A DNA stretch of 64,000 nt from Zygnema cylindricum (taxonomy: Eukaryota; Streptophyta; Zygnematophyceae; Zygnematales; Zygnemataceae): NCBI GenBank assembly GCA_037447655.1, contig JBBHKE010000880.1, forward strand, positions 1 to 64,000, read 5' to 3'. The first letter of the stretch is position 1. Each line of letters starts with the position of its first letter. Shown in pieces: positions 16,551 to 62,460 of the stretch. The notes under the pieces were generated by a model. It was not told the origin of the DNA. It was given only the letters and a program-made list of their open reading frames with translations, and made no database searches. Position numbers and translations under genes: made by a program.

Positions 16551-18390
16551 TTCATTGCTGTCCGTAATTCCTTCGGGCCAACAGGGTAGACTGCCCTAGA
16601 TAAATGGATTGTCGGATAGGTAATTGAGGACTTTAATCCCTTGGCGAAGGACATTTCGTTGGTGGAGATGAAGTTGTACATCCACTTTGTCCACAGTTAG
16701 GCAAGGGAGAAGGCCGTGACCGGCAAGACGCGCACAAATTTTGCATGCTTTGCCGCGGAGACCTCCTTGAGTGAGGAGGATCAAGTCGAACTGCAAGCTT
16801 TGTGGAAGCTTAAAGGGAAGCAGGTAGTTGACAGCGGGTCAAAACCAACAATTGGAGCAAATGAGCAAATGTTTCTCTATAATTGCATGAATTGTCAACA
16901 TCGAGGTCATGGGTGAAAGCATTGCACCCGAAAACTGAAACCAGAGCTGGCCTTGAAGCTAAAGGAATGGGAGAAAGAATGTGCAAAAAGGACCCGAAAG
17001 TAGCAAAAAAGGCTTAAAGGGGAGGGAGGGGGAGAGAAGACGCTAGTAACAAAATACACTTACCGTTTAAATCCCCAATGCGAAACCTCTAAGATGTCCC
17101 AATCTCAATTGCGGCAAATAAAACTTTCAAAGTTTGATGACCCCCAAATCTCCAATGAGATCCGGAGTAAATATACCACCGAGGGCGCTAAGTGTAAAGC
17201 TTGTGGTTTCTTGAGGCACAAGGAAAGGCAAAGTTTCCTGGAAGAACCTAGTTCCCAAGGAAATGATGCAATTTGCTTTGTTTACTGGAGAGGGAGAAAT
17301 GACTGTTAACCCTCTCCCACTTCAACTTCTTTACCCTTGGGGCCGACAAGTTATGTCCACGCCAAAGATACCTAAGTGGGCATAGGGTGCTTCGGCAAGG
17401 CTAACACCGGAGATCATGATACAAGAGCAAAGTCACCAATTGGTCGCAATGGTTGCAGAGTTGGTTGCCCGCCGTTTAGGATCTTTTTCACGACCTGTTC
17501 CTCTCACGGCAACACAAAGACTCCAAAAACAAAAACATGAGTTATTACAGAATATCGCGGAGCTTGAAATTCAAAGCACAGCGGTTGATAATGATGATAA
17601 ATTATTGGGCTTGAATTTGCAACCCCCAAACGCCCACCATGCTTGAAACTTCTTGTCCAGAGCTTGAAATAATGGGGTGGGAGACAGCCGCCGCCAACTC
17701 CGCAATTCCACCTCGATGCAAAGAGAGGACAGGCAAAAAATGGGTGAGAGGGATCACAACCGGAAAGCTACAGGTCCGTTGTTATTTAATCCCAGAGCAG
17801 TAATACTAAACAGCGACATCGCCTCGGAATCAAACCCAATAACCCGCCATCTCTTCCTCCCGAACATAAATTGCCTCACGGTTTCGAAAGCTACCAGAAC
17901 TTGAAATCGCAGTGGGAGAAGGAGGCACTAGAACGAGAGAAAAAAGACAATCAAGACTGGTTTGATAGATACATGGTAGACGCCTGGAGAATGACACTCC
18001 GTAAATACCCCCAATCCCAGATTTCGGCTACGAGAGTGAGAAAGAAAGACAAGATTAGGATCTGCAGGAACCGAATTCATCTCCATCTTCACCGAAAGCT
18101 ACACTTCCTTCCTCCAAACCGGCTGTCATGCTAGTCCAGCACCTCATGCCATACACCCTCACACACGTGAAGACTCTAGCATTCTCCCTCAACCTGCCCA
18201 AAGAAATCCTCATTCACGCATTGGGAGAGGAGATCCATTGTGGAAAGGGGAGAGTCGACAAGACCACTCCGCCAACCGCAGTCTTTTTGTCCACCGATCC
18301 TAAAACCCCTATGGTGGATAGGGACTACAAAGCCTTATCAGTGGCTCTTATATTGAGCCGAACTGGAAACTTCAAGCTCAACGGGTACGG
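16551..18390 (+). pseudogene. Gyp-1 gag region
   Basis: Degenerate gag, mostly in the frame of 16,716. A zinc knuckle CX2CX4HX4C is visible at 16,884-16,925 (CMNCQHRGH, then a TGA, then KHC). A second one at about 17,193 (CKACGFLRH) has its last cysteine replaced by serine. Charged, lysine/glutamate-rich linkers surround them. Later segments such as QRLQKQKHELLQNIAELEIQ (about 17,515) look like a coiled coil, and 17,871-18,134 is also highly charged. The gag start is missing. I infer gag from position and zinc knuckles, as no capsid motif is clear. Confidence 0.6.
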
Positions 18391-18800
18391 TGATACCTAG
18401 ACATTGTGGTCAACACCGGAGCGCTCCCCAACCTCATCACCTCCTCCGCTTTGCAGAAAATGCCCGAGGAACTCTTGCCCGAAATCTGCCCAAGCAATAT
18501 CTGCTGAAGCGGCTGTCATCGAGTCCATGGGATTATCAAGGCCATGGAAATCGATTTTTCTGATGATGGAGGACAAAGGGTGAAAATTGAGCTTCCCTTC
18601 TTAGTGGTGGAAGGGACTCAATTCGAAATCTTGTTGGGAATGGTCACTTGGACCTGACTCAATATGAGTTTGAGCGTGTGGAAGGAACAATGCACCGTTC
18701 GGGACCCCGCAAATCTCGAAGGAACCAAAGTGGTGGTTCCTTTGGATTTATGGAATCAGGGAAAGACCAATGTCCCGGTGTCTGGTTGCTATCGGTGTAT
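18391..18800 (+). pseudogene. Gyp-1 retroviral-type aspartic protease
   Basis: The frame from 18,397 reads LDIVVNTGALPNLITSSAL. This is the D-T/S-G-A active-site loop of a retropepsin with the catalytic aspartate changed to asparagine (codon 18,412-18,414). About 70 codons later FEILLGMVTW (18,622-18,651) matches the conserved hydrophobic-LG motif near the protease C-terminus. It would process the gag-pol polyprotein as a dimer. The Asp-to-Asn change and an intervening stop make this copy inactive. Confidence 0.75.
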
Positions 18801-18899
18801 ACTATATCATCTACGACGGAACCGTTTGGCAATTCCACAAATATTGCCGAAGAAATCTAGCAATTCCCAATTTCTAAGTGGTGGGAAGGGGAATATAAC

Positions 18900-19358
18900 A
18901 ATAGATTATTGCATGTGGCGAAACTCTGGCGGGGAGTGGATCACACATTTTCGGCTTTATCATTTAAGGAAACAGATTTTACACCCATGTCTGAAGCTTC
19001 CAAACACAAGTCATGTAACGAGGAGGTCGATCAACAAGTGGTGTTATTGGCAGTCCCCAATTTCGGACTGCGTATTTTATCTCTCTTTTCGAGAATTAGT
19101 TCCGATTTGGCAGCGGTCTTGAAAATAGTATATCTGGTGGAGTCATACGTAGCCGTGGATATATCACCCAAGGCGCGGGCTGTCAACGAACACCGCCTCC
19201 ACAAACTTCATCATCTATATCCTCAACAACTACAAGTGACTGACTTTTCCAAAGCTCACCGAAGTCTTCCACAAAATGTTGAAAACATTATGGCGCCCCA
19301 TAAAGCCAGTTTGGGAAAAATGGATTTCGTGTTGGCAGGCTGGCCTTGTCAGGTATAC
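18900..19358 (+). pseudogene. Gyp-1 DNA (cytosine-5) methyltransferase, N-terminal part
   Basis: The open frame carries the first conserved blocks of C5-DNMTs. Motif I, the SAM-binding loop, reads LRILSLFSRISSDLAA (19,068-19,115; family F-x-G-x-G-G, degenerate here). Motif II with its acidic residue is ESYVAVDISPKA (19,140-19,175). Motif IV with the catalytic cysteine is DFVLAGWPCQ (PC at 19,344-19,349). The frame is broken inside motif IV by Cop-7 and resumes at 27,448 in the same phase. DNMTs transfer a methyl group from SAM to carbon 5 of cytosine. Position between protease and RT argues for an element-borne gene. Confidence 0.85.
19354..19358 (+). repeat. Left target-site duplication of Cop-7
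   Basis: TATAC before the Cop-7 LTR pairs with GATAC at 27,448-27,452, one mismatch, which gives a 5-bp duplication as expected for copia. Removing one copy restores a DNMT motif IV frame reading GWPCQ then YSLAGQG. Confidence 0.75.
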
Positions 19359-20394
19359 TGCAATTCTATGTCCTCCATTCGACTACAGAATACAGGAAAC
19401 CTCTAGATAGTTATTAACTAGCGCACTTTAACCCACAGCCACTGCTGGCGAGGCAATGAAGCTGACAATCTGAATGTACCCCTGTGGAGCGTGGACTCCC
19501 TTGAGTTCGTAGGAAAAAGAATCTTTGAAAACGCCCAACCAGGCGATAAGTTATGAGGCAGTAAAAATGCCAATTTGTACAAACTCTCAAAGGGAGAGGT
19601 GACTACCTACCAAAATTTTCTAGGTCCTGATTCTCTCTAATAACTTCTATCTATTGAAGTACCGACCAATCAGATTAGTGTACCGTACAAAAAGTACTAT
19701 TGCCGGTGTACCTTTTGTACGACCTATGTATGACAAGGCTATTAAGCGGACGCGTGTTCACATTTCACTCGTCCGTACGTTCCTCGGAATTCCTATGACC
19801 GAATGTCATCTTTCCACGTGGCTCCAGGTCATGCCACGTCACAAAACGCCAAAGTGACCACTCCGGGATTTCGGCGATGATGTGCGCCGTTGGATTTTAT
19901 GCGAAACGCAATCTTAGCCATAATAAATATTTGCGCCCCATTTGTTTCGCTGTTGTAACACAATGCGTGGTATTCGTTTTGAATTACTATCGTACGACGT
20001 ACTTTCTAAAACTGAATCTATGTACGCCGTAAACAGTTGTAGTTAAATGGATTTAATTCATCCAAACTATGTATATATCTATCACATACCATAGCACTTA
20101 GCATTGGTGCTAGTCTATTAGGATATAGCTGACCGCTACTGGCCAACTTGACGAACTGTAGGTACCGGGATCAAATCTCTGGTCCATAAAGTATATTTTT
20201 AGTAACCTACTAAAAATAGCTGCCTGTTTAACTAAGGCAGCCATGGATCAACCACCCTCTCTAACCTTCAGTGACTACAACAAGTATGGGGGCTAGAGAG
20301 CGGAGGTGGAGGCAGGCTGTCCGTCCTTTTCTTTTCCTTTTATACAAACATATTTAAACCTAGAAAATACTCTAGAAATCTATAAATTTCAACA
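19359..20394 (-). repeat. Cop-7 3' LTR
   Basis: A minus-oriented LTR of 1,036 bp. The plus strand begins TGCAATTCTATG and ends AATTTCAACA. It matches the right LTR at 26,248-27,447, except that the right copy carries a 172-bp tandem duplication. The usual polypurine tract is not adjacent: truncated subfamily-B LTR sequence abuts at 20,395. Confidence 0.85.
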
Positions 20395-21370
20395 CAACCA
20401 CCCTGGCAAACAAAAGCTCTGGCCACCTTCACGCTTGTGAAGGCAAGACTCCCTTGAGTCGATAGCAAAAAGAATCTCTGAATTTGCTCCCTGAGTAGTA
20501 AGTTATGGAGGGTCAAAGTTGACCTTTTGTACAGAAGCTCTCAAGGAGAGAGGGTCCTATCTACCAATTTTTTCTAAGTCGTATCTCTCTCACACACTCT
20601 ATCTACCGATGTACCGAGCCAATCAGATTACACTTCCGTACACAAAAGTACAGCTGCCGGTGTACAATCTGTACAGACAATGTACGACTTGGCCTAAATG
20701 TCGACACGTGGGATAATGGATTCGCTCCATTAATCCTCGGAGATGTCGCGATCCAATGTCATTATGCCACGTGTCATCCGATGTGGGGATGACCAAAAAC
20801 CGCCGAAATCCTCTTCCGCGATCTCGGCGTTAATAATAGCCGTTCGATTAAATTTACATTTAATCGTAGCCGTAATAATTACATGCGCGGTATTCGTTTT
20901 GCTAAAGAAATAAATGCGCGGTATGCGTTTATTATTCGTACCGTAATCCGTACTTTTACATTACCGGATCTATGTCTCCCGTAAAAGTGTTTCAGTTAAA
21001 TGAACTGTCTTATGTAATAATGTTTAATTAAAAATCAAACCCTATAGTACATAACACTATGTCTAGACTTAACGGTTAAGGCTACCGGCTACCGGCTGCT
21101 TACTTTCCGGCAGGTACCAGGATCAAATCCTGGGGTAATCACATATTCTTTTAGTAAATAAACCCCTAACGATAAATAAACTAATATATATATTTCCTAT
21201 AAACCTCTGGATAGCCTAGGTAGCCATGGCTCTAGCTTCCTCTCCAACTTCTCAGTGACTACGACAAGTTTGAGAGTTAGAGAGAGAAGTTAGAGGTAGA
21301 CTGCCTTCGCTTCTTTCTATATTTCTATTTAAACCTAGAAAATACTTTAAACGGACCATTAATTTCTACA
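20395..21370 (-). repeat. Truncated subfamily-B LTR inside Cop-7
   Basis: Matches the LTRs at 8,633 and 30,705 but lacks about 90 bp of the U5 end. It ends ATTAATTTCTACA at 21,370. The antisense tRNA-like T-arm is very clear: CCAGG-ATCAAAT-CCTGG at 21,117-21,133, a perfect 5-bp stem with a 7-nt loop. Confidence 0.8.
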
Positions 21371-21925
21371 TTTTGTAGATGCCGCCATCTAATGTCATGT
21401 TGCCACATGTCACCCGGTGTGGCTGAGACCTCAAACCGCCAAATCATCCATTCCGCGATGCCGACTTCTTCCCTTGTTGACGGATGATATTGCCCTTAAT
21501 TTATAGCCGTTAAAATACAAGTAGTACTTTTAGACGTGATTATATCGAACTATATCTATGTGATTGTATTCAGTTTGTCAGTAAAATGAACTTTCTTATT
21601 TGTACATCTTTAAGTAGCTATCGTACCCTATATATCTCGACACAGGTTCTAGGCTACATGGTAACGAAGCTCGACTATTCAAACGGACAATAGGTACCAA
21701 GATCAAATCCTGGGTATGTTAACCTTTTTGGTAAGTTTAACAAAGGACTGCCTACTTTCTCTAGGAGAAGCATAGGCAGCCATGGCTCCAACTTCTTATT
21801 CAGCCTCGAGTGACTACGAGAAGTATGGGGCTAGAGAGAGAAGTTAGAAGCAGGGTGCCTCTGCTTTTTCTTCCTCATTTTTAAAAAACCTAGAAAATAC
21901 ATAAGAAATCCTTTTAATTTCGACA
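21371..21925 (-). repeat. Truncated LTR of a further subfamily (C)
   Basis: The reverse complement starts TGTCGAAATTAAAAGG next to a polypurine tract (21,926-21,944 reversed). It keeps the shared TATTTTCTAGG and GAGCCATGGCTGCC landmarks and stops mid-LTR at 21,371. Roughly half of the LTR is lost. Confidence 0.7.
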
Positions 21926-24004
21926 CTCCTTTTATTTTTTAGTCATCTTTTAGTTTAAGTCCACACTTCTCTCTGCAAAATATTATTTTAGGTGAAGGCA
22001 CTGGCTTTGTCATCATATCTACCACCATTTGACAGTTTGGTCTATATTATAGACTTATTCTTTTGTTCTCCACCTTTTCCCTAACAAAGCTAAGTCTGAT
22101 ATCTATGTGCTTTGCTTTAAAGTGATGTTTAGGATTAGCAACAATTGCAATTGCTGCTGGATTATCACAAAATATTTTATGAGTTCCAATCTTAAGATGT
22201 CCCAATTCACCAAGCAAGTATTTGACCCACATCAATTCCTTCACAACAGAGCAAGATGCTATATACTCAGCCTCCATGGTGGACTAAGCAATGAGCTTTT
22301 GCTGCTTAGTGCTTCAGCAACAAGCATAATTCCCCACATACAACACATATCCAGATGTACATCTTCTCATCGGAGCATCCCTATAGCTAGCATCACTCTA
22401 AGTGGTTATGTCAGTATTTTCCCCACCCAAATACAACCATAGATCCCTAATTTCTATTAGATATCTGAGGACACTCTTAGCAGCTTCCTTATCCCTTTTG
22501 GTAGGAGCATTCAAACTTCTACATAGCACTCCTAGAGCTGCTGCCAAATCCGGTCTCGTACAATTCATGAAATAAATAAGAGTGCCCACTTCCTGTTTGT
22601 ATGGAATAGTCTGCATGAATTTCCTCTCTTTTGGACCTTATTCATCATCAAGAATTAGGATGTCTCCTTGCTCATTCCCCTCACCTCCCTTCTTTAGATC
22701 CATGGGAGTTGTACAACTGTTGGCTTTGTCCATCTAAAATTTTTCCAACATGTTTCCAATTGCCTCTTTCTGAGTTAGTCTAATTATTCTCTTTTCTCTA
22801 TCTCTCTCTACTTGTATTCCCATAATATATCTCGCCTCCCCCATGTCTTTCATCTCGAATCTTCCCTTCAGATCTGTTTTTTGTTTGTTGATTTTCTCCA
22901 TTGACTTACTCAGAACAAGCAAATCATCAACATAAATTGCAATAAAGATGACACCTTTCTCGTCTTCAAAAACATAAATTGAATGAGCTGAGCTTATTCG
23001 AATGTAACCAGACCCGTAAGGAACTCATCAAGTTTCTTCTTTCACTGTTTGGGTGGTTGTTTCAAACCATAGAGAGATTTCATCAGCCGGCATACCTTAC
23101 TTTCTTCTCCTTGTTCCACGAATCCTTTCGGCTGTCGCATGAAGATCTCCTCCTCCAGTTCTCCATGCAAGAAGGAAGTTTTGATGTCCATCTGGTGTAC
23201 TTCTATGTCTTCTACAGCTTCCAGACTGAAAAGTATCCGGACCGAGGGGAATTTGACGACCAAAGCAAAGGTTTTTTCGTAATCTATTCCCTCTTTCTGA
23301 GTAAAACCTTTGGCCACTAACCGGGCCTTATATCGCTCAATAGTATTGTCAAGATTCAGTTTCAATTTGAAAACCCACATACATCCAATTGGTTTGCGAT
23401 CAGGTGGACAGTCCACCAGTTCCCATGTATCAGCCTCCATGATTGAAGCCATCTCTTCATTGATGGCCGTCTTCCATCGGTTTCTCTTCGGGCAGTTCAT
23501 TGCCTCTCTATATGTTTGAGGTTCATCTGGGTGAGAAAGTTTAGTCACTTTGTTATTAGCTTGTTTCTTTTGAAGTCTTTTGCTTCTTCTTCTTCCTCCC
23601 TCAAAAACTGTGGCCGGAGTAGATGGTTCCCGTGGGTTCTTTCAAATCACCAGAGCTTCTCCCCTATCTCTCGGATCCATATTCGTTTCCACCATGTCTC
23701 CCGCTTCAGGTATAGGTGTTACCGGTGTTTCCAAATCTTTCTCGGTCTGTTTTGAGCGTGCAAGGATATCTTCTTCCTAGAAACCCGGATAGTTAAGAAG
23801 GTGAAAGTCATCAGAATTATTTAACTCAAATCTGATTCTGACTAACTTTGAGGATTTGAAGGGATCTACCGACTTCCCTTCATCCATAGCTACCAAGTGC
23901 TTCACTAAAATTATATCTTCTTTTTTTAAATCATACACTCTATACCCTTTTACATCCTCATCATATCCTTACAAATACCCTGGTTTCCCTTTAGGATCTA
24001 GTTT
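21926..24004 (-). pseudogene. Cop-7 reverse transcriptase-RNase H
   Basis: Minus-strand pol. The open stretch 23,548-23,042 holds RT blocks KPIGCMWVFKLKLN, RYKARLVAKGFTQKEG, HQMDIKTSFLHGELEEEI and SLYGLKQPPKQ. The catalytic YVDD box is near 22,935. Thumb MKDMGEARYIMGIQVERD lies at about 22,860. RNase H lies at 22,616-21,990 (TRPDLAAALGVL, TTWSDASY-like, MEAEYIASCSVVKELMWVK, FCDNPAAI, ADMMTKPVPSPK). Stops and frameshifts occur between the blocks. It lies downstream of the integrase frame ending at 24,005. Confidence 0.85.
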
Positions 24005-25252
24005 CTAGTGCGATCTATCTGTATCTAAACTGAAGACTTTACTAGCGAAAACCTTTAAGTGAAAGAGATTTGGTTTTCGGCCGGTCCATCTCTCATATAG
24101 AGTTTGGTCTTTCACTGCCGAAGTAAGTACTCTATTTCTCAAATAATTAGCACAATTCATAGCTTCGGCCCAAAATCTTTTTTCTATCCTTTTATCTGAC
24201 AACATACTCTGGGCACTATCATTCAGTGTCCTATTCAATCTTTCGACAACACCATTCTGTTCCGGGTTTTTCGAAACTGTATTTTGATGTTGCACACCAT
24301 CCTCTCTTAAAAACTCCTCAAACTGATTGGAGGTATCTTCCCCTCCATTGTCACTTCTTACTCTTTTTATTGAGGTCTTGTGAAGCTTCTCGGCCCATGC
24401 TTTATATTGTTTGAAATACTCCGGAGTTTCTGATTTGTTTTTCAGAAAGTATACCCGGGAGTACCAAGACCAATCATCGGTAATGGTTAGCATAAATCTT
24501 TTTCCTCCGGGTGATGGCACTCTTGCCGGTCCCCAAATGTCCGTGTGTACCAAATCAATGACCTTTTCTTCTTTATAAGTTGCTTCCTTTGGAAATGCTA
24601 GCCTGTGTGTTTTACCCTGAGCACACCCACTGCAATCACTTACATGATCATTTTCCCCAAAGCGTATCCCTTCAACTACTCCCATCTTTTTCATTCCTTT
24701 TAGCTTTTCTAGATTAACATGCCCAAGTCTCTTATGCCACAACATAATATCATTGACACCAACATAGTAAAGTTTGAGTTTTTCATTACTTAAAGCAAGC
24801 CTGAACATTCCTTGGCTACCTTTCTCAACAGTGAAGTACACATCTTCCTCAAAGCTAGCTGTAAAAACTCCTTTTTTGGTGCTAGTTTCACATCCTTTAT
24901 CATCTAATACAGACGGAGAGATAAGGTTTTTGTTTAACCCCGGAATAAATAATACATCGGAGAACGTAACTATTGAGGTTTTTCCCTTCACTACAACTTT
25001 CAGATCTATCGATCCTACATAAGTAGTGGTACCTACCCTCCCATCCCCATATTCAATCTCAACTGTAGGAATATTTCTTAGGTTATTGAAGAGATGCTTA
25101 TCCTTGCACATGTGCATGGAGGCACCTGAATCCACAATCCAACCTCCTTCACCTTTTAGTCCACCGAAAACACATTTGTGCTTCTGTGGAATTTCAACTT
25201 CTGTCTTTGCCTCCGTCAAGAAGAAGCTCCCCATCCTCCTCAGAGGACTCAT
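24005..25252 (-). pseudogene. Cop-7 protease-integrase (415-codon open frame)
   Basis: A long uninterrupted frame with protease active site GGWIVDSGASMHMC (about residues 32-45), EYGDGRVGTTTYVGSIDLKV and FSDVLFIPGLNKNLIS. The integrase zinc finger is WHKRLGHVNLEKLK...CSGCAQGKTHRL. The integrase core shows HTDIWGPARVPS, RSDNGGEDTSNQF and KNPEQNGVVERLNRT, so the D, D, E triad is intact. The family C-terminal motif HLKVFASKVFSLD closes the frame. It is the longest open protease-integrase frame in the window. Gag, upstream on the minus strand, is in another frame. Confidence 0.9.
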
Positions 25253-26243
25253 CCTCGGTGTCTCCTGTCACCTTTGTGACCAAAAGTGCCTTTTTCTTCC
25301 CTCCGTAAGAACCCACTCCTTGGTTCTCTTTGAGCCTCAGCTCCGCCAGCTTGGCACAATCCGCAATAAAGTGCCCTGGCTTTTTGCAAAAATGACATAG
25401 GCCCTTTGGGGGCCTCGGTCCTCCAGGTTGGACTCTTTCTCCTTTGTATGGTTTTTTCGGTTCCGGTCTCCACCCGTCCCCTCCCGCGGCTGGAGCTTGA
25501 ACGCTCTTTCCACCTTCTCGATCTTCATGGTATTTTCCTGCACAAGTATCATTCGACCACTGTATTCCACTTCCATGAACTATCAGTCATTTCTTGTTCT
25601 CGGTACACTAAGTTCTCATACTCGTCTGGTAACTTCATGATGAGAGTGTTTACTTTCATTTTCATTGTGCCTGTCCAACCAACACTTTCCATCTCCATAT
25701 ACAAACAAGAAAGATCATTGCAATAATCTAACATCTTTCCTCCTTTGTACGTGTAACTCACTAGCTTTTGCTCAGCCAACTGGAGCTTCGAATGGTACCA
25801 ACTCTATAGATCTCAACCAAACTTTCCCACAACTCCTCGGTCTTGTAAATATTAAGGTGAGAGGTGGCCAATGCTTGAGTGAGATGCCTTAGAATGAAGT
25901 TCTTGGCAGCCATGTTTATGTCTTCCCACATTTGAACATCGTTCTCCACTGTCTTCACGGCCGCCGCTCCTGGTGCCGTGGCAATAGGGGTGAGGGGTGT
26001 CTCCTTCCCTTTCCCCTTTTCGGACACACTGCTGTCCCCATCATCTGCCTCCTTGGCGGAAGCAGCCGTTGTTGCAGAAAACCTTACTCCCCCAAATCCT
26101 GGCGGAGTTCCCGAAGGTGGTCGTTTCACTTGTCCACTGACGATACCCCAGTATCGTTTTTCACACAAAGCTCCCATCATCATGGCTTCCCAATAGATGA
26201 ACCCAGATCCATTGAAAGTGGGTACCTTAGAGGGTGGGCCCAT
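25253..26243 (-). pseudogene. Cop-7 gag
   Basis: Starts at the ATG in the primer-binding site (26,243-26,241) as MGPPSKVPTFNGSGFIYWEA and is open for 160 codons to 25,761. A frameshift near 25,780 leads to MAEQKLVSYTYKGGKM and LIMKLPDEYENLV. Further shifts are followed by a zinc knuckle of the CHFCKKPGHFIADC type at about 25,400-25,360. An acidic segment (DTEDESSEEDGEL) precedes protease. This is the clearest evidence that gag starts at the primer-site ATG. Confidence 0.85.
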
Positions 26244-26247
26244 AACC
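26233..26247 (-). other. Cop-7 primer-binding site with gag ATG
   Basis: The reverse complement reads GGTTATGGGCCCACC directly next to the LTR end at 26,248. It is complementary to the initiator tRNA-Met anticodon arm. The gag ATG is internal to the site. Confidence 0.85.
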
Positions 26248-27447
26248 TGTAATTCTGTGTGGACTACAAAATACAGGAAGCCTCTAGATAGTTGTTATAT
26301 AGCCCACTTTAACCCACAGCCACTGCTGGCCAGGCAAGTAAGCTGACAATCTGAATGCACCCCTGTGCAGCCTTGACTCCCTTGAGTCCGTAGGAAAAAG
26401 AATCTCTGAAAACGCCCAACCAGACGATAAGTTATGAGGCAGTAAAAATGCCAATTTGTACAAACTCTCAAAAGGAGAGGTGAATACCTACCAAAATTTT
26501 CTAAGTCCTGATTCTCTCAAATAACTTCTATCTATTGAAGTACTGACCAATCAGATTACTGTACCGTACAAAAAGTACTACTGCCGGTGTACCTTTTGTA
26601 CGGCCTATGTACGACAAGGCTATTAAGCAGACGCGTGTCGGCATTTCACTCGTCCGTACGTTCCTCGGAATTCCTATGACCGAATGTCATCTTTCCACGT
26701 GGCTCCAGGTCATGCCACGTCACAAAATGCCAAAGTGACCACTTTGGGATTTCGACGATGATGTGCGCCGTTGGATTTTATGCGAAACGCAATCTTAGCT
26801 GTAATAAATACTTGCGCGGCATTTGTTTCGCTGTTGAAACAAAATGCGTGGTATTCGTTTTGAATTACTATCGTACGACGTACTTTCTAAAACTGAATCT
26901 ATTTACGCCGTAAACAGTTGTAGTTAAATGGATTTAATTCATCCGAACTATATATATATCTATCACTTAGCCGTAATAAATACTTGCGCGGCATTTGTTT
27001 CGCTGTTGAAACAAAATGCGTGGTATTCGTTTTGAATTACTATCGTACGACGTACTTTCTAAAACTGAATCTATGTACGCCGTAAACAGTTGTAGTTAAA
27101 TGGATTTAATTCATCCGAAATATATATATATCTATCACATACCATAGCACTTAGCATTGGTCCTAGTCTATTAGGATAAAGCTGACCGCTACCGCCCAAC
27201 TTGACGAACTGTAGGTACCGGGATCAAATCTCTGGTCCGTCAAGTATATTTTTAGTAACCTACTAAAAATAGCTGCCTGTTGAACTAAGGCAGCCATGGA
27301 TCAACCACCCTCTCTAACCTTCAGTGACTACAACAAGTATGGGGGCTAGAGAGCGGAGGTGGAGGCCGGCTGTCCGTCCTTTTCTTTTCCTTTTATACAA
27401 ACATATTTAAACCTAGAAAATACTCTAGAAATCTATAAATTTCAACA
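26248..27447 (-). repeat. Cop-7 5' LTR with 172-bp internal duplication
   Basis: The LTR is 1,200 bp because the segment 26,795-26,966 is repeated at 26,967-27,138 with very few differences. The duplicated block includes a TATATATAT run, the best TATA-box candidate, so the promoter may be doubled. The left LTR of the same insertion has one copy. Confidence 0.85.
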
Positions 27448-28200
27448 GATACTCCCTAGCGGGACAAGGAAAAAGGCATCAAGACCGCAAAAGTGGAACA
27501 TTTTACCGGATGATTGAATTAATCTCGTGGCTTCAACAACTCTAGGAAACACCGGTGGGGTACGTTTTGGAAAAAGTCCACTCGAGAGATCATATACGGA
27601 AATAGATTGTTGATAGCTGGAATCACGTAAAACGAATTTTAGGAGCTCCGTTGGCTTTCGACGCAGCACAGATGGGATCTGGGGCACTCAGAGTAAGGGC
27701 ATATTGGATTAATATTAACCTGCTTACCATCCTCCGCCGACTGTTGGATAAGCAAATCCCCGATCCGCAGAATTATGTACAACAAATTCTTCGGGAAGCT
27801 AGGATGGCTACCCTTGTGACGCGACCTGACCACTCACCTTTCTTTTGGTTCAACAAACCGGGATTCGCACGGAAATCTCTCCCGACTTTGGTCTCTTTTC
27901 CTCACAGTCACGTTTATCACAAAATAGCAGCGGGTATGATTTTTGACGGTAAGGCGGGAATCTGGACAACACCGACGATTGTAGAACGAGAACAAGCCAT
28001 GGGATTCCATAAACACACCACGGCAGCATCAAGTATTTCAGACCTCCATAGGTGCAGCCTTATAGGGCAAAGTATGGATTTGAATGCCATCACATGGGTG
28101 CTCAAGCATGCATTCGCCTTTTCTAGTCTCCAACCCTGTGAGTCAAGGGTTGTTTACCTTCAAGCTCCTCAGTTGATAGCGCTGCAGGCAACTTAACAGC
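27448..28200 (+). pseudogene. Gyp-1 DNA methyltransferase, C-terminal part
   Basis: Continues the DNMT in the phase left at 19,358. The rest of motif IV is YSLAGQGK. Motif VI is VGYVLEKV (27,555-27,578; family E-N-V). Motif VIII is LRVRAYWIN (27,687-27,713; family R-x-R-x-x-x-x-N). A short target-recognition region follows. Motif IX is EREQAMGF (27,984-28,007) and motif X is SLIGQSMDLNAITWVL (28,056-28,103). Two stops occur, near 27,542 and 27,600, and the last 181 codons (27,651-28,196) are open. The RxRxYW-x-N block and short TRD recall DNMT3/DRM-type enzymes more than DNMT1, but this is only an impression. The order of motifs is complete and canonical. Confidence 0.88.
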
Positions 28201-29140
28201 TTGAGGGGGGAGAGAAAGGAGAAGAAAAATTCACATTTCACCACCGCAGTTTTTCCCAGTTGGAGGTGGGAGGCGGCTCAGATGGCGACAGCTTAGCGGA
28301 AGTTGTCAGCAATCGCATCCTAGCCAGAGGGGTAGAGGAAAATCCACTGGTAGGATTGGAATTTGATATTAACCTCTGGGGTAGACCGCCGGAGGCTAGG
28401 GCTGTTGTAGAGCTTGGGAAAATGGATTCGACCTTAAGGTAGTAGTTGGATCTTCAGCAGAAGGTGTAGCTCTCCGAACTATTGGCCAAAAATAAAAAGT
28501 CGTTCTCATGGTCAAAAACAGATGTCGATATTTACAAAGGAGCACCCTTCCGAATAGACTAGATCGACGAGACGGCTACTGTTTGGCAAAAGCAGTATCC
28601 TCTCAGTTTCAAGGAAAAGGAATTTATCTCGGCTAAAGTCCAGACTTTGGTGGAAGCTGGATTGGTTCAAGAAAGTACATGACTTCTTGGGTTCGCTTCC
28701 CCAACAATTCTCCCTCCCAAGAAGGACTCGTCCGGGAAGACTTTACATTTCTGGATGTGTGGAGAGTATTGCATGCTGAACAAGGCCACCATCTGTGACC
28801 GGTACCCGATGGCGACCCCGGAAGAGATATTCCACTCTCTTGCTCGCGCCACTATCTACTCCTCTCTGGACATGAAGAACGGTTTCCACCAGATTGCCAT
28901 GGAATCAAAGCACAAGGAGAGAACCGCATTTCAGGCGGGTTCCAGACTTTATGAATAGATTTACATGCCATTCGGGCTCAAGAATGCACCGACCAAATTC
29001 GAACAGGCAATGGTTGAAGTGTTTAAAAAATCGATTATGCTCGATGCTATATTGATGATGTTATTGTATTCTCAAAGACCTTTGAGGAACACCTCCAACA
29101 TGTCATGATTGATCTCCGGGCACTCTAAGCAGCGGGTTTG
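28201..29140 (+). pseudogene. Gyp-1 reverse transcriptase
   Basis: Gypsy-type RT. An N-terminal segment, FKEKEFISAKVQTLVEAGLVQEST (split here at about 28,605-28,680), precedes ASPTILPPKKDSSGK. The palm reads YCMLNKATICDRYPMATPEE, YSSLDMKNGFHQIAM and YMPFGLKNAPTKFEQAM (28,965-29,010). The catalytic YIDDVIVFSK box is frameshifted near 29,040-29,080. The linker from the DNMT (28,201-28,500) is poorly preserved. It uses a Y.MPFGLKNAP motif typical of Ty3/gypsy, not of copia. Confidence 0.85.
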
Positions 29141-29965
29141 AAATGTTACCCGGGCAAAGGTATTTTTGGGGTGCAGATAATCATTTACCTCAGACATGAG
29201 GTTACTTCCGGACTGTGGATCCCTACATGGTCAAGGTGGCAGCCCTCAACGCTCTTACCGCCACTACAGGACATCTCAGCCTTTCGCACCTTTTTGGGCC
29301 TGGCCAACTACTATCGGCAGTTTATCCCCGAGTTCAGTAGTCACGCTCAGCCCCTTAAGCAGCTATTGCGGAAGGACCAAGAATGGCAATGGGCCGAAGT
29401 ACAACAGATCTCCTTCCAGTTCTTGAAGGATGCTCTGAAGCAGCACCACGTGCTCCGGATGCTTGAGCACCAGAGGCCTTTCCTTCTTTATACTGATTAG
29501 AACAGGTTTGGATTAGGAGCGGTTTTAGCTCAAGTCGATGATGCGGAGATAAATATGTGGTGGCCTATACCTGCTGGAGCAACAACAAAGCAGAGGGTAA
29601 TTATAGCAGTTACCACGCAGAGTTACGCGCAGCGGTTTGGGGCATCTAGAATTTTCGGCCTTATTTATACGGAGTCCATTTCACACTTATTACGGATCAC
29701 CAACCCCTGAAATGGATCATGGAAAATAGTAAGTTAGCCAACAAACTCGCCAGATATGTTCTTATCCTGCAGGAATATGATTTTGACATTGTTCATAGGG
29801 CTGGGGAAATCCATGGGAATGCCGACAGACTTAGCCAGAATCCTGATCCCTCCATCCTAGATTATATCAACGCTCGCCATGATGAGGACCATGAGATCAA
29901 TTTGGGACTCATTCGAGCATCCTCTGCTTTCATTTGGCTTCCCCAATCTGGGGTGGAACTGTGAA
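29141..29965 (+). pseudogene. Gyp-1 RNase H
   Basis: The connection segment AFRTFLGLANYYRQFIPEFS (29,280-29,340) is followed by PLKQLLRKDQEWQW. RNase H reads LLYTD then a stop, GLGAVLAQVDD, and VHFTLITDHQPLKW at about 29,660-29,715. IVHRAGEIHGNADRLSQ at about 29,790-29,840 is the usual gypsy RNase H end. Stops and one frameshift are present. The order RT, RNase H, integrase is the Ty3/gypsy order. Confidence 0.85.
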
Positions 29966-29979
29966 CTTTCTCGGCCGAC

Positions 29980-30704
29980 GTGGAGGGGCAGGCACCCATA
30001 GGGGTCAGACGTAAGGATATCTGGAATGATCTCGATGCTCTCCAATCTATCCAGCTGGGGGCGCCTTTTCCCCACTTGACTGGAATTGAATTATCTCGAG
30101 TGCAGACCCAAATAGTGGCGTACGATTGGGACAAAGGAGTTCTCCTCCGAAAATGGTCAAAAGGCACAAGGAAAGTGGTTCCTCCTCCCTCAGACCGAGA
30201 AACTCTGATTTCGAATCTCCATCAGCAATATGGACACTTCGACCAAAAGCGGACCACTTCCCTGGTTGCGGGCACCTACAGGTGGCATGGATTGCGGACC
30301 CAAGTCAACCAAATTGTGCAGACTTGCTCCTCATGCAATCGAGTGAAGGCAGCTTTTGACAAAAAGGGCGGGACTGAGCTTCATTTGCTTCCTATCCCGC
30401 GAATGTTTTATCGGTGGTCGTTGGACCTTTTGGGACCTCTTCCGACCAGCAAGCGTGGGAATTGCTTTGTGCTGGTCATGATAGAACATTATTCTAAGTG
30501 GATCTAATTGGTGGTTTTGCCCCGGAAGGAGTCCAAGGCAATTGCAGACGCCTTTTTGCAAATGATTTTAGCCCAATTCGAGGCGCCTGCGGAAGTTCTA
30601 ACCGACCAAGGCTCCAAATTCGCCAGATAATTTTCCAGCCTCTTGGAAAAATGTTTGGCCGATCATCGGCTGACCAGCCGTGACCACCCGCAAGGCGACG
30701 GCTT
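29980..30704 (+). pseudogene. Gyp-1 integrase, truncated
   Basis: A 175-codon open frame includes the HHCC zinc finger (QQYGHFDQKRTTSLVAGTYR...CSSC, 30,225-30,335) and the first catalytic aspartate in RWSLDLLGPLP (about 30,415-30,445). After a TAA at 30,507 the next block contains LTDQGSKFA with the second aspartate (about 30,600). The sequence stops at 30,704 where the Cop-8 LTR begins, so the catalytic glutamate and C-terminal domain are missing. Integrase would insert the element cDNA into the genome. Confidence 0.85.
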
Positions 30705-53327: not shown

Positions 53328-53933
53328 TTATGGGGGAGGAGAGGAAGGAGGGGAGGAGCGTGGAGGCGAGGATGGTGGAGGAGAAACGGGAGGGGGGGAG
53401 AGACGAGGAGTTGGGTATTGTGGAGGAATAGAGGTAGGAGGTGAGGAAGCCGGACGTGTGGACTGTGGAGGTGGTGGAAGACGCGAGGGAGGAGGGGGGC
53501 GACTACGAGGAGGGGATGGTGGAGGACGAATGGGAGGAGGGGGGAGACGACGAGGAGGGGATGGTGGAGGACGAATGGGAGGAGGGGGGAGACGATGAGG
53601 AGGGGATGGTGGAGGACGAATGGGAGGAGGGGGGAGACGACGAGGTGGGGATGGTGGTGGACGAACGGGAGGATGGAGGAGACGACGAGGGGATGGTGGA
53701 ATACGAATGGGAGGAGGGGGAAGACGTCGAGGTGGAGATGGTGGTGGACGAATGCGAGGAGGGGGGAGACGACGAGGTGGGGATGGTGGAGGACGAATGG
53801 GAGGAGTGAAAACAGATCGTGGGGGAGGTGGTTGCGACACTACAAAACCATCAAGAGAATAATTTTCATCGTCAATCACGTACCACAAAAAAAACAATGT
53901 TTTTAAAAAAATGAACTTCATTGAAAGTCTCAA
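53328..53933 (-). CDS. Proline-rich repeat protein ORF (hydroxyproline-rich-glycoprotein-like), hypothetical
   Basis: A minus-strand ORF of 201 codons. The first ~30 residues include a hydrophobic stretch ([15 protein letters not shown]) that could be a signal peptide. The rest is almost only P, S and R in a 15-residue unit [15 protein letters not shown], repeated about six times, then a PPS/SPP-rich tail ending at TAA (53,330-53,328). SPPP-type repeats recall extensin-like cell-wall glycoproteins of green plants and algae. The complementary strand is also open (Gly/Arg-rich) because the 45-bp unit has no stops, so the coding strand is uncertain. No promoter or intron can be assigned, and it may be an untranslated satellite. 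Confidence 0.4.
53475..53811. repeat. 45-bp purine-rich tandem repeat (minisatellite)
   Basis: About seven units of a 45-bp G-rich motif containing GGGGATGGTGGAGGACGAAT and GGGAGGAGGGGGG. The units differ by a few bases, and some are shortened by 3 or 6 bp, which keeps the reading frame. The dense runs of G on the plus strand could form G-quadruplexes. Confidence 0.85.
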
Positions 53934-57499: not shown

Positions 57500-58300
57500 A
57501 GAGAAACTTAAACCTTCGTAACGCAAATTTGGAGAGTGTAGTTTCGCAATTCCAAAATCAAGCTCAAAAATCAAAGCCGAAGAGGAAGACATCGGATGAT
57601 TTAGATCCTTCTAAGAAGGTGGACCTTGAGACGTGGCTCTTCACGGTGGAGTCCTACTATTTCCAATTTTCCGCTCTCGAGGACAACGAGAAAATTCTGT
57701 ACGCGGGAGGAATCCTACGGAGGGCGGCTGCTGCGTGGTGGCGCTACATGGTGAAAATTAACAAGGTACGTAGGAATTGGGAGGCGTTAAGCTTGGCAAC
57801 CGGCGAATACCGTCAAAACGGCTCGAGACAAGATTGCAAACCTCCAGAAAAGTCATCGGTGATGGAGTATTCGCAATAGTTTTCGGAGCTTTAAGTTAAA
57901 ATACCCACGATGAGCGAGGAGGCGGTCGATTGATACGTGAGAGGACTTAAATACTTCGTCCGGTGAAACGTGGAACAATGGCGTAAGAGGGACGGTGGGA
58001 GATACCTCTTACAGATATTAGACTTTAGTATTTGGAAGAGAGATTTCCCTTAACATTCCTTCGGGAAACGCAACGATTCCCCAACTCCCATGGAACTTGG
58101 TGTTGTGGAAGTGGAAGACAAGGAACTCGGAGCGCTTTGAAAGACAAGGAAAAGCCAAGGTTCAATATTTCAAAGGAGGACCTTTAAAAGAGGAGGCAAG
58201 ACGGGTTATGCTTCCGATGCGGCTCCCCCGACCACATGGCAAAGGTGTGTTCCTCAAAAGACAGCAAGACGTAGAGGAGGGCCGAATGAAAGTTTTACGG
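57500..58300 (+). pseudogene. Gyp-2 gag
   Basis: The frame around 57,529-57,879 reads DLDPSKKVDLETWLFTVESYY and AAAAWWRYMVKINKVRRNWEAL, which fits the retrotransposon gag (capsid) domain: a W-rich core followed by W-x-x-F/L segments. After breaks, a zinc knuckle CFRCGSPDHMAKVC (CX2CX4HX4C, all ligands intact) lies at 58,209-58,250 in another frame. Gag would package the RNA. Confidence 0.8.
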
Positions 58301-58850
58301 CTTGTAGGAGATGGGAACAAACCCTTCAAATTCCAAGGTCAAGTTTGTGGAGTCCCGATGCTCTTCATGAACGAGTCGGGAGGGTCCGGGAACTTTAAAA
58401 GCCAAGAAACGCGAAGCGTCTCAAGGTGACTTTGCTTTCACCGAAAGAGCGGTCTTCGATTATTTTAGCCAATGGGCGACCTCTTAACGTAAACACCCGC
58501 ACTCTTACCCTTGAGCTCGGCATCCGAGGTTACAAGTGGAATGACGGGCACATGACGGGCACAACGTCGTTCTCGGCAAACCGTGGCTCAAAAGTGGAAT
58601 CTGTTGATCGATTGGAGGAAAAGTGCACTTTTGGTGGAGCAAGGAGGCAAAAAGCTTGTTCTTAGAAAGGAACCAATAGGCAAACGCGCGAGGAGGACGC
58701 TTCCTTACAATTGAAGAGAACTATGCGTAAAGGGTAACAAATTAATATAATGCTTGTCACAATAGTCAAATCGGAAGATTCCGAGGCAAGTGATGGAATA
58801 CTTGAGAAGACCGAGTCGTCATCAAGTCTAAGCGTAAGGACCAAGAAATT
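58301..58850 (+). pseudogene. Gyp-2 aspartic protease
   Basis: FKFQGQVCGVPMLFMNESGGSGNF at about 58,328-58,400 matches the start of a retropepsin, in which the active-site D-S-G is E-S-G here. Later pieces in other frames (GYKWNDGHMTGTTSFS, about 58,530-58,590) correspond to the flap and C-terminal half. The catalytic Asp-to-Glu change would abolish activity. Confidence 0.7.
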
Positions 58851-60420
58851 ATGTGGTGGCCTTGGAGGTCGTGGCAAAACTTCTCGAGGAGTATGTGCAT
58901 GTTTTCCCCAACAAGTTACCTTCTGAATTACTGCCAAAGAGGAGTGTGGATCATTGGGAAGAGTTCATTCCCTATGCCAAACCTCCCTGTTTATTGTTTT
59001 GGAAAACTATGGACTCTCAGCGATGAAGATAAATCTTGTCGCTGGAGTAGCGATGACCAGCCACGAAACACTTTTACCGACGTAACAAGAATTCCATGCG
59101 AACATGAATTTCATGCGCACTAAATGAAACACTAAGTTAAGGTTGAAAGTCAACGCGAATTTTACGGACTGGTCGGCGAACAAATACCTTATTGGTGTAG
59201 AAAAAGTCGGTGGTAAACTTACCACCAAGTATAATCTGTCGTAGTGCGTAGTAATGCTTAAAATAGTACTGTACAGTTTTTAGCGTAAGTGACAAACCAG
59301 GGTTATCTGTAGCAAGAGATTGTACTCTAGATTAATTGTACCAGATAGTGGATTCGACAGTACGAGAGTGCGCCCACAGTGATCTTATTGGTAATTAGGA
59401 AATTAGATAGGCGTAGTGGTATAAATTAGGACTTAGACATTTGGAAAATTAACTTGTACAAGTTCACTAAGTAAAGTAACATTTGAGTCTGCCTTTGTGT
59501 GCATGTCACCTTGTGACTGATCAGAGTTTGTGCTTTTTGTGCTTGAAACTCTGTCAGTATACTGTGGTAAGTGTGAGCTCTAAGTGAGCTGTGTTGTAAG
59601 CCTAAGTGGCTTTTGTAGTACTAAATATAAGCTGGTCAAAGTTGGCCATTTGTGTGGTACTTTTTGGGTTGTCTTTTGCTGAATTAAATGGGTGACTTTG
59701 CACCTTCTGGTAGTGTCCCTGTTGCTGCAGAGCAACACCGTCAACCACATGTATAAGATGAGTCACACGGAGCTTGACGAACTCAAAAAACAGCTTGCGG
59801 AACTTGTCCAATCTGGAGCGATTGAGCCAAATAAGTCCCCTTACGGAGCTCCCGTGTTATTTGTGCTAAAGAATGACGAAGGTTTAAGGCATTGCTTGGA
59901 TTAGCGGGCTCTCAATAAGATGACGGTGAAGAATTCTTATCTTTTACCGCGATTCAACAAACTCTTGGACCAGGTTCGTGGCGCTAATCATTTTTAGCAA
60001 AATCGACTTACGGGGCGGATACCATCAAAGAAGGGTGGCGGAAGAGGATGTCGAGAAGACCATGTTTTGCACGAGCTACGGACACTATCAATTCCTTGTC
60101 ACGCTGTTTGGTTTAGCCAACGCTCCGGCAGCTTTCATGCATCTCATGAATTCGATTTTCCGACCTTATCTCGATAAGTTAGTGGTGGCCTTCCTCAACG
60201 ATGTCCTCATTTACAGTCGTTCTTTGGAGGAGCACGTGGAGCCCTCCAAAATATCCTCTACATTTTGAGGGAGCATAAATTTTACGCCAAGTTAAGCAAG
60301 TGTGAGCTCGCAATGGATAAGGTGGAATTCTTGGTGCACATGGTGACACGCGATGGAATTTGGGTGGATCTATGAAAGACAAAGTCCATGGAAAATTGGC
60401 TTATCCTCGGAAACTTTCTA
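58851..60420 (+). pseudogene. Gyp-2 reverse transcriptase, split by an insertion
   Basis: The N-terminal block is LEVVAKLLEEYVHVFPNKLP and LLPKRSVDHWEEFIPYAKPP (58,862-58,987). It resumes at about 59,738 with YKMSHTELDELKKQLAELVQ, IEPNKSPYGAPVLFV and a broken RHCLD[16 protein letters not shown]. The palm is [12 protein letters not shown] (59,990-60,025), and the [12 protein letters not shown] block follows. The catalytic box is FLNDVLIYS at about 60,190, with the first Asp of the DD pair changed to Asn. The C-terminal thumb is around 60,270-60,370. Confidence 0.85.
58988..59737. mobile_element. ~750-bp insertion in Gyp-2 RT
   Basis: Between the KPP codons (58,979-58,987) and the YKMSHTEL block there should be only a few codons, but ~750 bp of unrelated AT-rich sequence intervene. 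The insert starts TGTTTATTG and can be read to end GAGCAACA, so TG...CA as for an LTR. No matching target duplication is seen next to these ends, so the borders are approximate. It has GTAC motifs (59,269, 59,338, 59,361) but no alignable similarity to the copia LTRs. Confidence 0.5.
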
Positions 60421-60990
60421 AGTTACATCGACGTTTTGTGGAGGGATTTGGACGTATCGCCGCACCACTTATGGACCTTTTGAAGCAAGATAAGTCGTAC
60501 GAGTGGGAAAAGCACAAACGGAGATATTTAACACTCTAAAGGAACGATTGGTTACCGCTCCTTGTTACTTGTCCTCAACCCTGATAAGGAGTGGACGATC
60601 GTCACGGATGCGAGTGACATAGCCATCGGGGCCATTCTTCTTTAAGAACAAGAGCGAGGACTTCAACCGGTGGCGTATGAACCTATGAAAATGAAACCGT
60701 CGGAGTTAAATTACGTGACCTATGAGAACGAGACTCTCGCGATCATTCACTCTCTTCAAGCGTAGTAATGTTATGCGCAAGGAAAGGAGGTCAAGGTGAT
60801 CACGAATCATCAAGCCCTCACATATCTTGAAACGCAACCGAGATTAGCATGGCGTCAAGCGCGGTGGTTGGAATTCATGCAATGCTCGGCCCGGAATTAA
60901 ATGTGGAGTACCGACCGAGGAGACTAAATCTGGCAAATGCACTCAAACGAGCTCTGAAGGAGAAAACACCACAAGTCGCGAGCCTTTAGA
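60421..60990 (+). pseudogene. Gyp-2 RNase H
   Basis: WTIVTDASDIAIGAILL (about 60,590-60,640) is the first RNase H motif with its aspartate. VAYEPMKMKPSELNYVTYENE follows, then VKVITNHQALTYLETQPRLA (about 60,798-60,855) with the second aspartate as asparagine (the family reads TDH). The terminal block RPRRLNLANALKRAL-like is frameshifted near 60,920-60,955. The connection domain before it is broken at 60,420-60,590. Confidence 0.8.
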
Positions 60991-62220
60991 GTACGCTCGG
61001 CGTGGACACTAAATGGTTGTGAGAGTTCGAGGAGCCGTACAAGACCGACACAACAATCACCAAGCTCAAAAGAAAATCGTGGTTGAGGAAGGGAACGAAC
61101 TTTGGAAGTACCGCAAGAGTACAAAGACCCGCCTTTATGTTTCGAACTGTGCGGAAATCTGACATTGAGTCCTCAAATCTTGTCATGATGACCCGACAAG
61201 TGGACATTTTGGGCGCGACAAAATGCTCGCACGAGTGATGGAGTCGTTTTATTGGCCAAAGATGACAGAGGAAATTGGTCATTGTCTTCGAATGTGCAAT
61301 TCGGACAAAATGAACAAGAACGACCACTTCACCCACGGACTCCGACAGCCTTAAATGACACCTTTAAAGCCTTGTGAGGCGATGTCAATAGATTTCATTA
61401 TGGCACTACCGGAGACCCTATAAGGTTTTGCCTCCATTTTGTGTTGGTGGATTACCTCACTAAAATGGTCCATTTTCTCCCAGCAAAGACAACCGCAACG
61501 ACGATGGAAGTGGCCGACTTATTCCTTAACGGAGTCTTCCGTTACCATGGTCTTTCCGAAAAAATCGTTAGCGATGGAGACCATAAATTTGTGAATCATT
61601 TTTCGACTCAGGTCTTTTAGCTTAATGGCACGGAGTTGGCGATGTCGACGACCTATCATTTACAAATGGACGGGCAAACGGAGCTGATCAACCATATTTT
61701 GGAGGACACGCTATGGGCATATGTCACAATGCACCAAAGGGATTGGGCCAAACATCTCACGACAGCCGAGGTGGCATACAATAGTGTAATGCACTCATCA
61801 ACAAACAAAACTCGAGCTCAATGGGCGACAACCACTCCTTCCGCAGAATCCCGTCCAGTTGACTACGGAGACCAAGGCGGCGACGAGTTGTATCACAAAT
61901 TTACGAAACGACCGTAGCCAAAGAGGCGTTGGAGTTGGCCAAGAGTTGTCGGGCATTTTACGTTAATATGCAGTGGCGAGACTGGAAATTTCGTGTGGGG
62001 GATTGCTTGCGACTCAATATGGCCATTTTCACCCTCCCATAGACAATGAGTCGCAAACTATCGGCCCAGTTCACTCGAAATTTTTAGATCATCGAAGAAA
62101 TTAGCCCCGATGACTGTCGCGTTGATATTACGATGGAGTGGGAAATACATGAAATTTTTCATATTTCACAACTCAGAGAATTTTGGGATCTCGATGCGGT
62201 GTATCCGCACCGATAAAAAC
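60991..62220 (+). pseudogene. Gyp-2 integrase
   Basis: Degenerate zinc-finger region near 61,190-61,330. Core: AMSIDFIMALPE (61,380-61,415, first Asp), VDYLTKMVHFLPAKTTATT (61,447-61,503), VFRYHGLSEKIVSDGDHKFVN (second Asp, about 61,575) and DGQTELINHILEDTL (61,669-61,713, catalytic Glu). HQRDWAKHLTTAEVAYNSVMH follows in a 93-codon open piece (61,636-61,917). The C-terminal GPY/F-type region FHISQLREFWD is near 62,155-62,190. Confidence 0.85.
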
Positions 62221-62244
62221 AACCCCTCTTCCACCCATCTCGGC

Positions 62245-62425: not shown

Positions 62426-62460
62426 GAAGCGTAGCCACCTCCATTTTCCGGGGGAACTGA

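What the first reader, a model, noticed from the sequence alone, without database searches (positions are those of the whole stretch)
16551..30704. Ty3/gypsy retrotransposon with an internal DNA cytosine methyltransferase
Between aspartic protease (18,397-18,651) and RT (from about 28,500) lies a complete set of C5-DNMT motifs in canonical order: I at 19,077, II at 19,140, IV (PCQ) at 19,344, VI at 27,555, VIII at 27,687, IX at 27,984 and X at 28,056. All share one orientation and, on both sides of the Cop-7 insertion, one reading phase. A host DNMT gene would not sit between retroviral protease and RT, so the enzyme was part of the element. Capture of DNMTs by LTR elements is, to my knowledge, reported in charophytes and dinoflagellates. 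The element might methylate its own cDNA or new insertions, either to hide from damage or silencing or to limit copy number. The function is inference.
Basis: partly seen in the sequence, partly recalled or inferred. Interest (0 to 1): 0.93.

Follow-up and report, generated by a model that had tools for sequence, protein, structure and literature searches.

The report
Decayed retrotransposon carrying a DNA methyltransferase
This stretch holds the broken remains of a virus-like jumping gene that carried its own DNA-methylating enzyme, a rare kind of element described in algae, and related sequences turn up in liverworts and mosses too.

Summary
Window 16551-30704 is a decayed, LTR-less Ty3/gypsy fragment in the order CCHC knuckle, protease, C5 DNA methyltransferase, RT, RNase H, integrase, split inside the DNMT (after PCQ) by a Copia element. 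Three DNMT pieces hit a profile built without window sequence, in order and on successive model positions (E 2e-47, 6e-24, 1e-3). The family is DNMT3-like with canonical motif order, not DRM-like.

The DNMT belonged to the element. A complete relative (L001) encodes gag-PR-DNMT, one in-frame UAG in a CARYYA context, then RT-RH-IN-PHD; the window is collinear with it. In 61 long relatives the protease lies upstream of the DNMT in 42 and RT downstream in 9, with no reversed case. 22 of the 61 are named as liverwort or moss proteins.

The kind is known: KnitGypsy-Dnmt3 of a charophyte alga (PMC5890265). Not found in the texts I searched: land-plant members, a PHD finger after the integrase, a DNMT on the Gag side of a leaky-type stop. 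This copy is dead. Most likely the enzyme methylated the element's own cDNA or fresh insertions (inference). The host of the window is unknown.

The parts
16551..30704 (+). Ty3/gypsy fragment without LTRs, most of gag and the integrase tail; interrupted by a Copia element at 19359-27447
   Evidence: collinear with L001; edges are Copia LTR ends
16884..16925 (+). CCHC zinc-knuckle remnant of gag, with one in-frame stop
   Evidence: read by eye from the translation
18406..18639 (+). aspartic protease remnant (NTG for D(T/S)G)
   Evidence: about 224 aa before DNMT motif I, against 229-248 aa in seven sequences measured; profile support only E 6.1
18861..19352 (+). DNMT3-like methyltransferase, N-terminal part, motifs I to IV (PCQ)
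   Evidence: E 6.1e-24; 35% identity to L001 ORF1 residues 739-837, E 1e-15
19359..27447 (-). Copia element nested in the DNMT, LTRs 94-96% alike over the two aligned stretches
27453..28128 (+). DNMT3-like methyltransferase, C-terminal part, motifs VI (EKV) to X, two in-frame stops
   Evidence: E 2.2e-47 and 0.0014; P0081 40% over 188 aa, E 5e-41; L001 36% over 165 aa, E 2e-29
28470..29125 (+). reverse transcriptase, broken over several pieces
   Evidence: PF00078 4.9e-5, below its curated cut-off; P0081 67% over 91 aa
29129..29961 (+). end of RT and RNase H
   Evidence: PF17919 1.3e-4, PF17917 1.4e-11; L001 62.5% over 80 aa
29965..30704 (+). integrase, zinc-binding and core, cut at a Copia LTR end
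   Evidence: PF17921 4.7e-14; L001 ORF2 residues 553-780

Best explanation
The region is a dead copy of a Ty3/gypsy retrotransposon whose lineage had captured a DNMT3-type cytosine-5 methyltransferase between protease and reverse transcriptase. In the intact relative L001 the enzyme is the C-terminal part of a gag-protease-DNMT product ending at a UAG in the leaky UAG-CAR-YYA context; occasional readthrough would add RT-RNase H-integrase-PHD. The DNMT would then be made and packed at Gag level, cut free by the protease in the particle, and methylate the element's own double-stranded cDNA or its fresh insertion, so that new copies enter the genome marked like resident DNA. Shown: the domains, their order, the intact relative, protein-level conservation of the DNMT, the stop context. 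Inferred: readthrough, packaging, cDNA methylation, and a benefit to the element. The confidence given is for identity as a DNMT3-carrying gypsy relic; for the cDNA-methylation mechanism I would say about 0.45.
For: Profile hits in order on successive model positions. PDB and fold matches of relative P0003 are led by DNMT3A/3B. Intact L001: PF00145 6.8e-12 in ORF1; RVT_1, RT_RNaseH, H2C2, rve and PHD in ORF2; RT-RH matches Ty3-G at 4.9e-100. Order in 61 long relatives: PR upstream 42, RT downstream 9, integrase downstream 4, none reversed. Spacing: PR to motif I 224 aa in the window, 229-248 in seven sequences; motif X to RT 247 aa, 250-265 in P0081, P0094 and L001 (P0046 has 139). Against L001 the DNMT is more alike than gag in 7 of 7 relatives and than protease in 6 of 11. 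PC and ENV are both kept in 35 of 42 near-full rows. UAG CAA UCA at the ORF1/ORF2 border fits the readthrough motif (PMC3542737, passage). De novo CG methylation by retrotransposon DNMTs is stated in the abstract of PMC5890265.
Against: This copy cannot work (NTG, EKV, stops, frameshifts). CpG O/E of the gypsy pieces (0.69, 0.71) is like that of the three Copia elements measured (0.55-0.73), so there is no special trace of self-methylation. The readthrough motif occurs twice in L001, the second on the minus strand, against 0.36 expected, and 15 of 200 shuffles have two or more, so the motif alone is weak. Groups such as P0081, P0083, P0088 and P0094 have no stop between DNMT and RT, so Gag-level expression is not general. 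Three candidate catalytic departures (EHV in four near-full rows, P0079, P0091) exist. No methylation was measured.
Confidence: 0.93

Rival explanations
1. A host DNMT3 gene or retrogene that landed by chance inside one gypsy copy.
For: The DNMT halves are far more decayed than the profile family and score poorly alone.
Against: The same place, order and spacing in L001 and in many relatives from other genomes.
Confidence: 0.02
2. The enzyme serves to limit the element's own copy number, or the host, by inviting silencing of new insertions, instead of hiding the cDNA.
For: Cytosine methylation is the usual silencing mark; PMC5890265 (discussion) raises slower transposition as an option.
Against: Conservation of the DNMT close to that of protease across the relatives suggests a direct use in the element's own cycle (inference).
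Confidence: 0.25
3. The DNMT acts on RNA, or as a structural or nucleic-acid-binding part of the particle.
For: PMC5890265 suggests RNA methylation for a LINE-type relative that showed no DNA activity in yeast.
Against: Fold and sequence are nearest DNMT3, and PC and ENV are kept in 35 of 42 near-full rows.
Confidence: 0.15
4. A DRM-type plant methyltransferase was captured.
For: Chains 4onj (named DNA methyltransferase; tobacco DRM by recall) and DRM2 match P0003 at E 1.2e-8 and 1.6e-4.
Against: Motif order in window and relatives is the canonical I-IV-VI-VIII-IX-X, and DNMT3A matches better and longer (6.1e-12).
Confidence: 0.02

Closest known systems
KnitGypsy-Dnmt3 of Klebsormidium nitens (PMC5890265)
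   Same: A Gypsy element with an unrearranged DNMT3-type domain in its polyprotein, without introns.
   Different: The paper's text places the DNMT in the Pol polyprotein ORF and does not contain the word PHD; in L001 the DNMT is in a gag-PR-DNMT ORF and ORF2 ends in a PHD finger.
SymbioDIRS-Dnmt3 and SymbioLINE-Dnmt of dinoflagellates (PMC5890265)
   Same: Retrotransposons that carry a cytosine methyltransferase.
   Different: DIRS (tyrosine recombinase) and LINE classes, not Ty3/gypsy.
Chromoviruses, Ty3/gypsy elements with a chromodomain after the integrase (PMC6317226, passages)
   Same: A histone-reading type of module C-terminal to the integrase in L001, P0082 and P0086.
   Different: A PHD finger instead of a chromodomain, and a DNMT between PR and RT.
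Animal DNMT3A/3B catalytic domain
   Same: Nearest solved sequences and fold, canonical motif order.
   Different: About 25% identical over the structure alignment; part of a retroelement polyprotein; Pfam found no PWWP or ADD in the relatives scanned.

Membership tests
Ty3/gypsy LTR retrotransposon | pol order PR-RT-RH-IN with gypsy-type RT | tested here: met
   the RT-RH of L001, collinear with the window, matches Ty3-G at 4.9e-100
Ty3/gypsy LTR retrotransposon | flanking LTRs, primer binding site, target-site duplication | tested here: inconclusive
   not seen in the window, whose copy is cut on both sides by Copia LTR ends; L001 has 127 bp of identical ends and about 2 kb of non-coding DNA between ORF2 and gag
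C5 DNA methyltransferase (PF00145) | motifs I, IV, VI, VIII, IX and X in order | tested here: met
   VI is EKV in this copy; PF00145 is reached in the relatives but not by the window halves alone
DNMT3 family | nearest to DNMT3 by sequence and fold, unrearranged | tested here: met
   tested on relative P0003 and on L001; no tree with host DNMT3 proteins was possible
DRM family | rearranged order, VI-X before I-IV | tested here: not met
KnitGypsy-Dnmt3 kind (Gypsy with internal DNMT3) | DNMT3 domain inside a Gypsy polyprotein | tested here: met
KnitGypsy-Dnmt3 lineage of Klebsormidium nitens | one clade with the K. nitens elements in DNMT and RT trees | not testable with these tools
   no K. 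nitens sequence was returned under that name
PHD-bearing sub-kind | PHD finger after the integrase | not testable with these tools
   the window copy ends inside the integrase at 30704; the PHD is present in L001, P0082 and P0086

The most novel reading that the evidence does not exclude
A widespread gypsy lineage in bryophytes, and probably streptophyte algae, carries a two-part epigenetic kit: a DNMT3 writer that in one group is made at Gag level upstream of a leaky UAG, and a PHD reader on the integrase whose nearest solved relatives (CHD4, UHRF1, KDM5, AIRE) include readers of the unmodified H3 tail (binding recalled). The element would place its copies in chromatin without H3K4 methylation and deliver them already methylated. 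The window holds a divergent, dead branch of it.
Probability: 0.4. Interest if true: 0.8.

Novelty: new member of a known kind. Interest (0 to 1): 0.62.

Why it matters
[quoted passage not shown] Proteins found here (18 named Marchantia polymorpha, 2 Calypogeia fissa and 2 Sphagnum of 61) speak against that for liverworts and mosses. Marchantia is a laboratory plant, so the question why an element would carry the enzyme that usually silences it becomes directly testable. Such DNMTs sit in public gene sets mostly as hypothetical proteins, so they may be missed or miscounted among host DNMTs.

Tried and rejected
Searches that gave little or nothing: Pfam on the two window halves gave no PF00145; PDB gave nothing for the N half at E 1 and E 0.58 at best for the C half; tblastn in phages; viral contigs with the window C half, P0001, P0003 and A6; genome contigs with P0001. 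Five viral-contig loci from A7 (L002-L006) match only part of the query (residues 113 to 213 at most, 27-49% identity) and were not followed. Rfam and tRNA scans of the window found nothing.

Considered and dropped: DRM origin (motif order); a chance host-gene insertion (relatives); CpG depletion as a trace of self-methylation (CpG O/E 0.69 and 0.71 against 0.55-0.73 in three Copia elements; the second gypsy and two gene-free stretches have 0.99-1.12). In the tree the window C half joins P0081 (99/80) and P0086 (98/87), but on a long end branch (1.12) and 173 columns, so the place is not firm. The host was not identified. No Ka/Ks was possible, as only one relative was available as DNA.

Rows dropped before counts: the tree has 68 rows (67 of 96 proteins and the window C half) with at least 120 of 173 columns; the 42 rows are those with at least 300 of 338 columns out of 96; one search compared 11 chosen proteins for ORF1 and 5 for ORF2; one search scored only the 7997 candidates sharing most words. 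The 18 Marchantia entries come from two annotation versions of one species, so loci may be counted twice.

Papers: of PMC5890265 I read the outline with abstract, sections 9 and 11, and passages; of PMC6338049, PMC6317226, PMC12344493, PMC9033089, PMC5784723, PMC10952607, PMC8775202, PMC10508981, PMC6453930, PMC8616336 and PMC3542737 passages only; all others only as search listings. PMC12344493 speaks of LTR Copia and DIRS elements with DNMT3, citing the 2018 paper, which itself says Gypsy. That land-plant members, the PHD or the leaky stop are not in print rests on ten searches of an open-access library and may be wrong.
Full report
What is there. Window 16551-30704 carries on the plus strand a CCHC knuckle, a protease remnant, a cytosine-5 methyltransferase, RT, RNase H and integrase. 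The methyltransferase is split just after the PCQ codons by a minus-strand Copia element, 19359-27447, with flanks TATAC/GATAC. Both outer edges coincide with ends of Copia LTRs, so the gypsy's own LTRs, most of gag and the integrase tail are not seen.

Is it a methyltransferase? Alone the halves score poorly: no PF00145, and DNMT3A at E 0.58 for the C half. One database search with the C half found a single protein, P0001 (E 9.6e-8 in 5.8 billion sequences). A profile of both found 35 proteins; 4 of the 35 carry PF00145, all four above the curated cut-off when scanned. A profile from seven relatives, without window sequence, was run on all 1615 six-frame pieces of the window and hit three pieces, in order, on model positions 4-104, 104-132 and 156-328; the next piece has E 0.076. 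The stretch between 132 and 156 holds the two in-frame stops and the EKV motif.

Was it part of the element? The search for long relatives gave 61 proteins at E 0.01 or better among the 7997 candidates scored: 18 named Marchantia polymorpha, 2 Calypogeia fissa, 2 Sphagnum, 1 in a Candidatus Obscuribacterales MAG, and 38 without an organism name. 53 of the 61 have PF00145 precomputed, 4 of them together with RVT_1 (P0046, P0052, P0081, P0094). All 96 proteins match the DNMT profile, as expected from how they were found. In the 61, protease lies upstream of the DNMT in 42, RT downstream in 9, integrase downstream in 4, PHD after integrase in 2, and no case is reversed. Some Marchantia gene models lack stretches, perhaps through predicted introns (inference).

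The intact relative. A scan of prokaryote genome contigs gave one relative, CADCWO010000201.1, 9285 bp, in a Synechococcales MAG; from its content I take it for eukaryotic contamination (inference). ORF1 holds gag-like sequence, two CCHC-type knuckles (by eye), PF13650 protease (7.8e-4, below its curated cut-off) and PF00145 (6.8e-12); ORF2 holds RVT_1, RT_RNaseH, H2C2, rve and PHD (4.3e-10). RT-RH matches Ty3-G at 4.9e-100. The contig ends repeat 127 identical bases, as a collapsed LTR pair or a circle would give. Window pieces align along ORF1 739-1061 and ORF2 107-780 in order. Spacings agree: PR to motif I 224 aa in the window against 229-248 in seven sequences; motif X to RT 247 aa against 250-265 in P0081, P0094 and L001, with P0046 deviating at 139.

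Expression. In L001, ORF1 and ORF2 lie in one frame with one UAG between them, followed by CAA UCA, which fits the UAG_CAR_YYA readthrough motif (PMC3542737, passage). Control: the nine-base pattern occurs twice in L001 (the other on the minus strand) against 0.36 expected, and 15 of 200 shuffles have two or more. Of the 26 protein ends printed, eight (P0062, P0064, P0065, P0069, P0071, P0072, P0074, P0075) end in NALSATK-like tails as L001 does, so the stop position is kept in that group. P0081, P0083, P0088 and P0094 run from DNMT into RT without a stop. So only where the stop exists would the DNMT belong to the abundant Gag product.

Constraint. Against L001 the DNMT is more alike than gag in 7 of 7 relatives, more alike than protease in 6 of 11 and at most 4 points below it in the other 5; the PR-DNMT linker is lower than the DNMT in 11 of 11. 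PC and ENV are both kept in 35 of 42 near-full rows; the other seven are four EHV rows, P0079 (KNV), P0091 (ECQ, ENT) and P0041 (PS). This fits selection on the enzyme but is not Ka/Ks.

PHD. The L001 finger is nearest to fingers of CHD4, PHF12, UHRF1, MLL3/KMT2D, KDM5 and DPF proteins; several of these bind H3 tails without K4 methylation (recalled). P0086, which groups with the window in the tree, also has a PHD, so the window's ancestor may have had one (inference); here that place is cut away.

How it most likely works. Packed DNMT methylates the element's cDNA or fresh insertion (about 0.45), with copy-number control, an RNA target or a structural role as rivals. PMC5890265 reports in its abstract that retrotransposon DNMTs can methylate CGs de novo and suggests self-methylation of retrotranscribed DNA. 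CpG O/E in the window gives no support either way.

Known or new. Gypsy with DNMT3 is published for the charophyte Klebsormidium nitens (PMC5890265); the window is a further member of that kind. A 2019 paper says such elements are absent from land plants (PMC6338049), against which the liverwort and moss proteins speak. The PHD and the leaky-type stop were not met in the texts searched. Whether all of this is one lineage with KnitGypsy-Dnmt3 could not be tested.

Noticed in passing
L001:1-9285: A complete eukaryotic gypsy-DNMT-PHD element, with 127-bp identical ends, sits as a contig in a public cyanobacterial MAG (CADCWO010000201.1); one relative (P0067) is likewise filed under an Obscuribacterales MAG, so such elements contaminate bacterial genome records.
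   Followed up: partly
L001:3489-3497: UAG CAA UCA between two in-frame ORFs, the tobamovirus-type leaky stop context, in an LTR retrotransposon.
   Followed up: partly
window 57502-62460, +: A second, different Ty3/gypsy element in pieces (RVT_1 8.1e-14 at 59930-60265), without a DNMT hit; a chromodomain-like end at 62263-62457 was seen by eye only and gave no Pfam match. Its CpG O/E is 1.03 against about 0.7 for the DNMT gypsy.
   Followed up: partly
window 1-45740: A dense nest of Copia elements in both orientations with many LTR fragments related at 75-94%.
   Followed up: no
window 63400-63936, -: ORF with a galactose-binding domain (PF22633, 2.5e-6), perhaps a host lectin gene and a clue to the host; a proline-rich tandem-repeat ORF lies at 53328-53933, -.
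   Followed up: no
P0083, P0084, P0085, P0090 (unnamed JGI or Logan proteins): A group of element DNMTs with EHV instead of ENV in motif VI, possibly altered catalysis.
   Followed up: no
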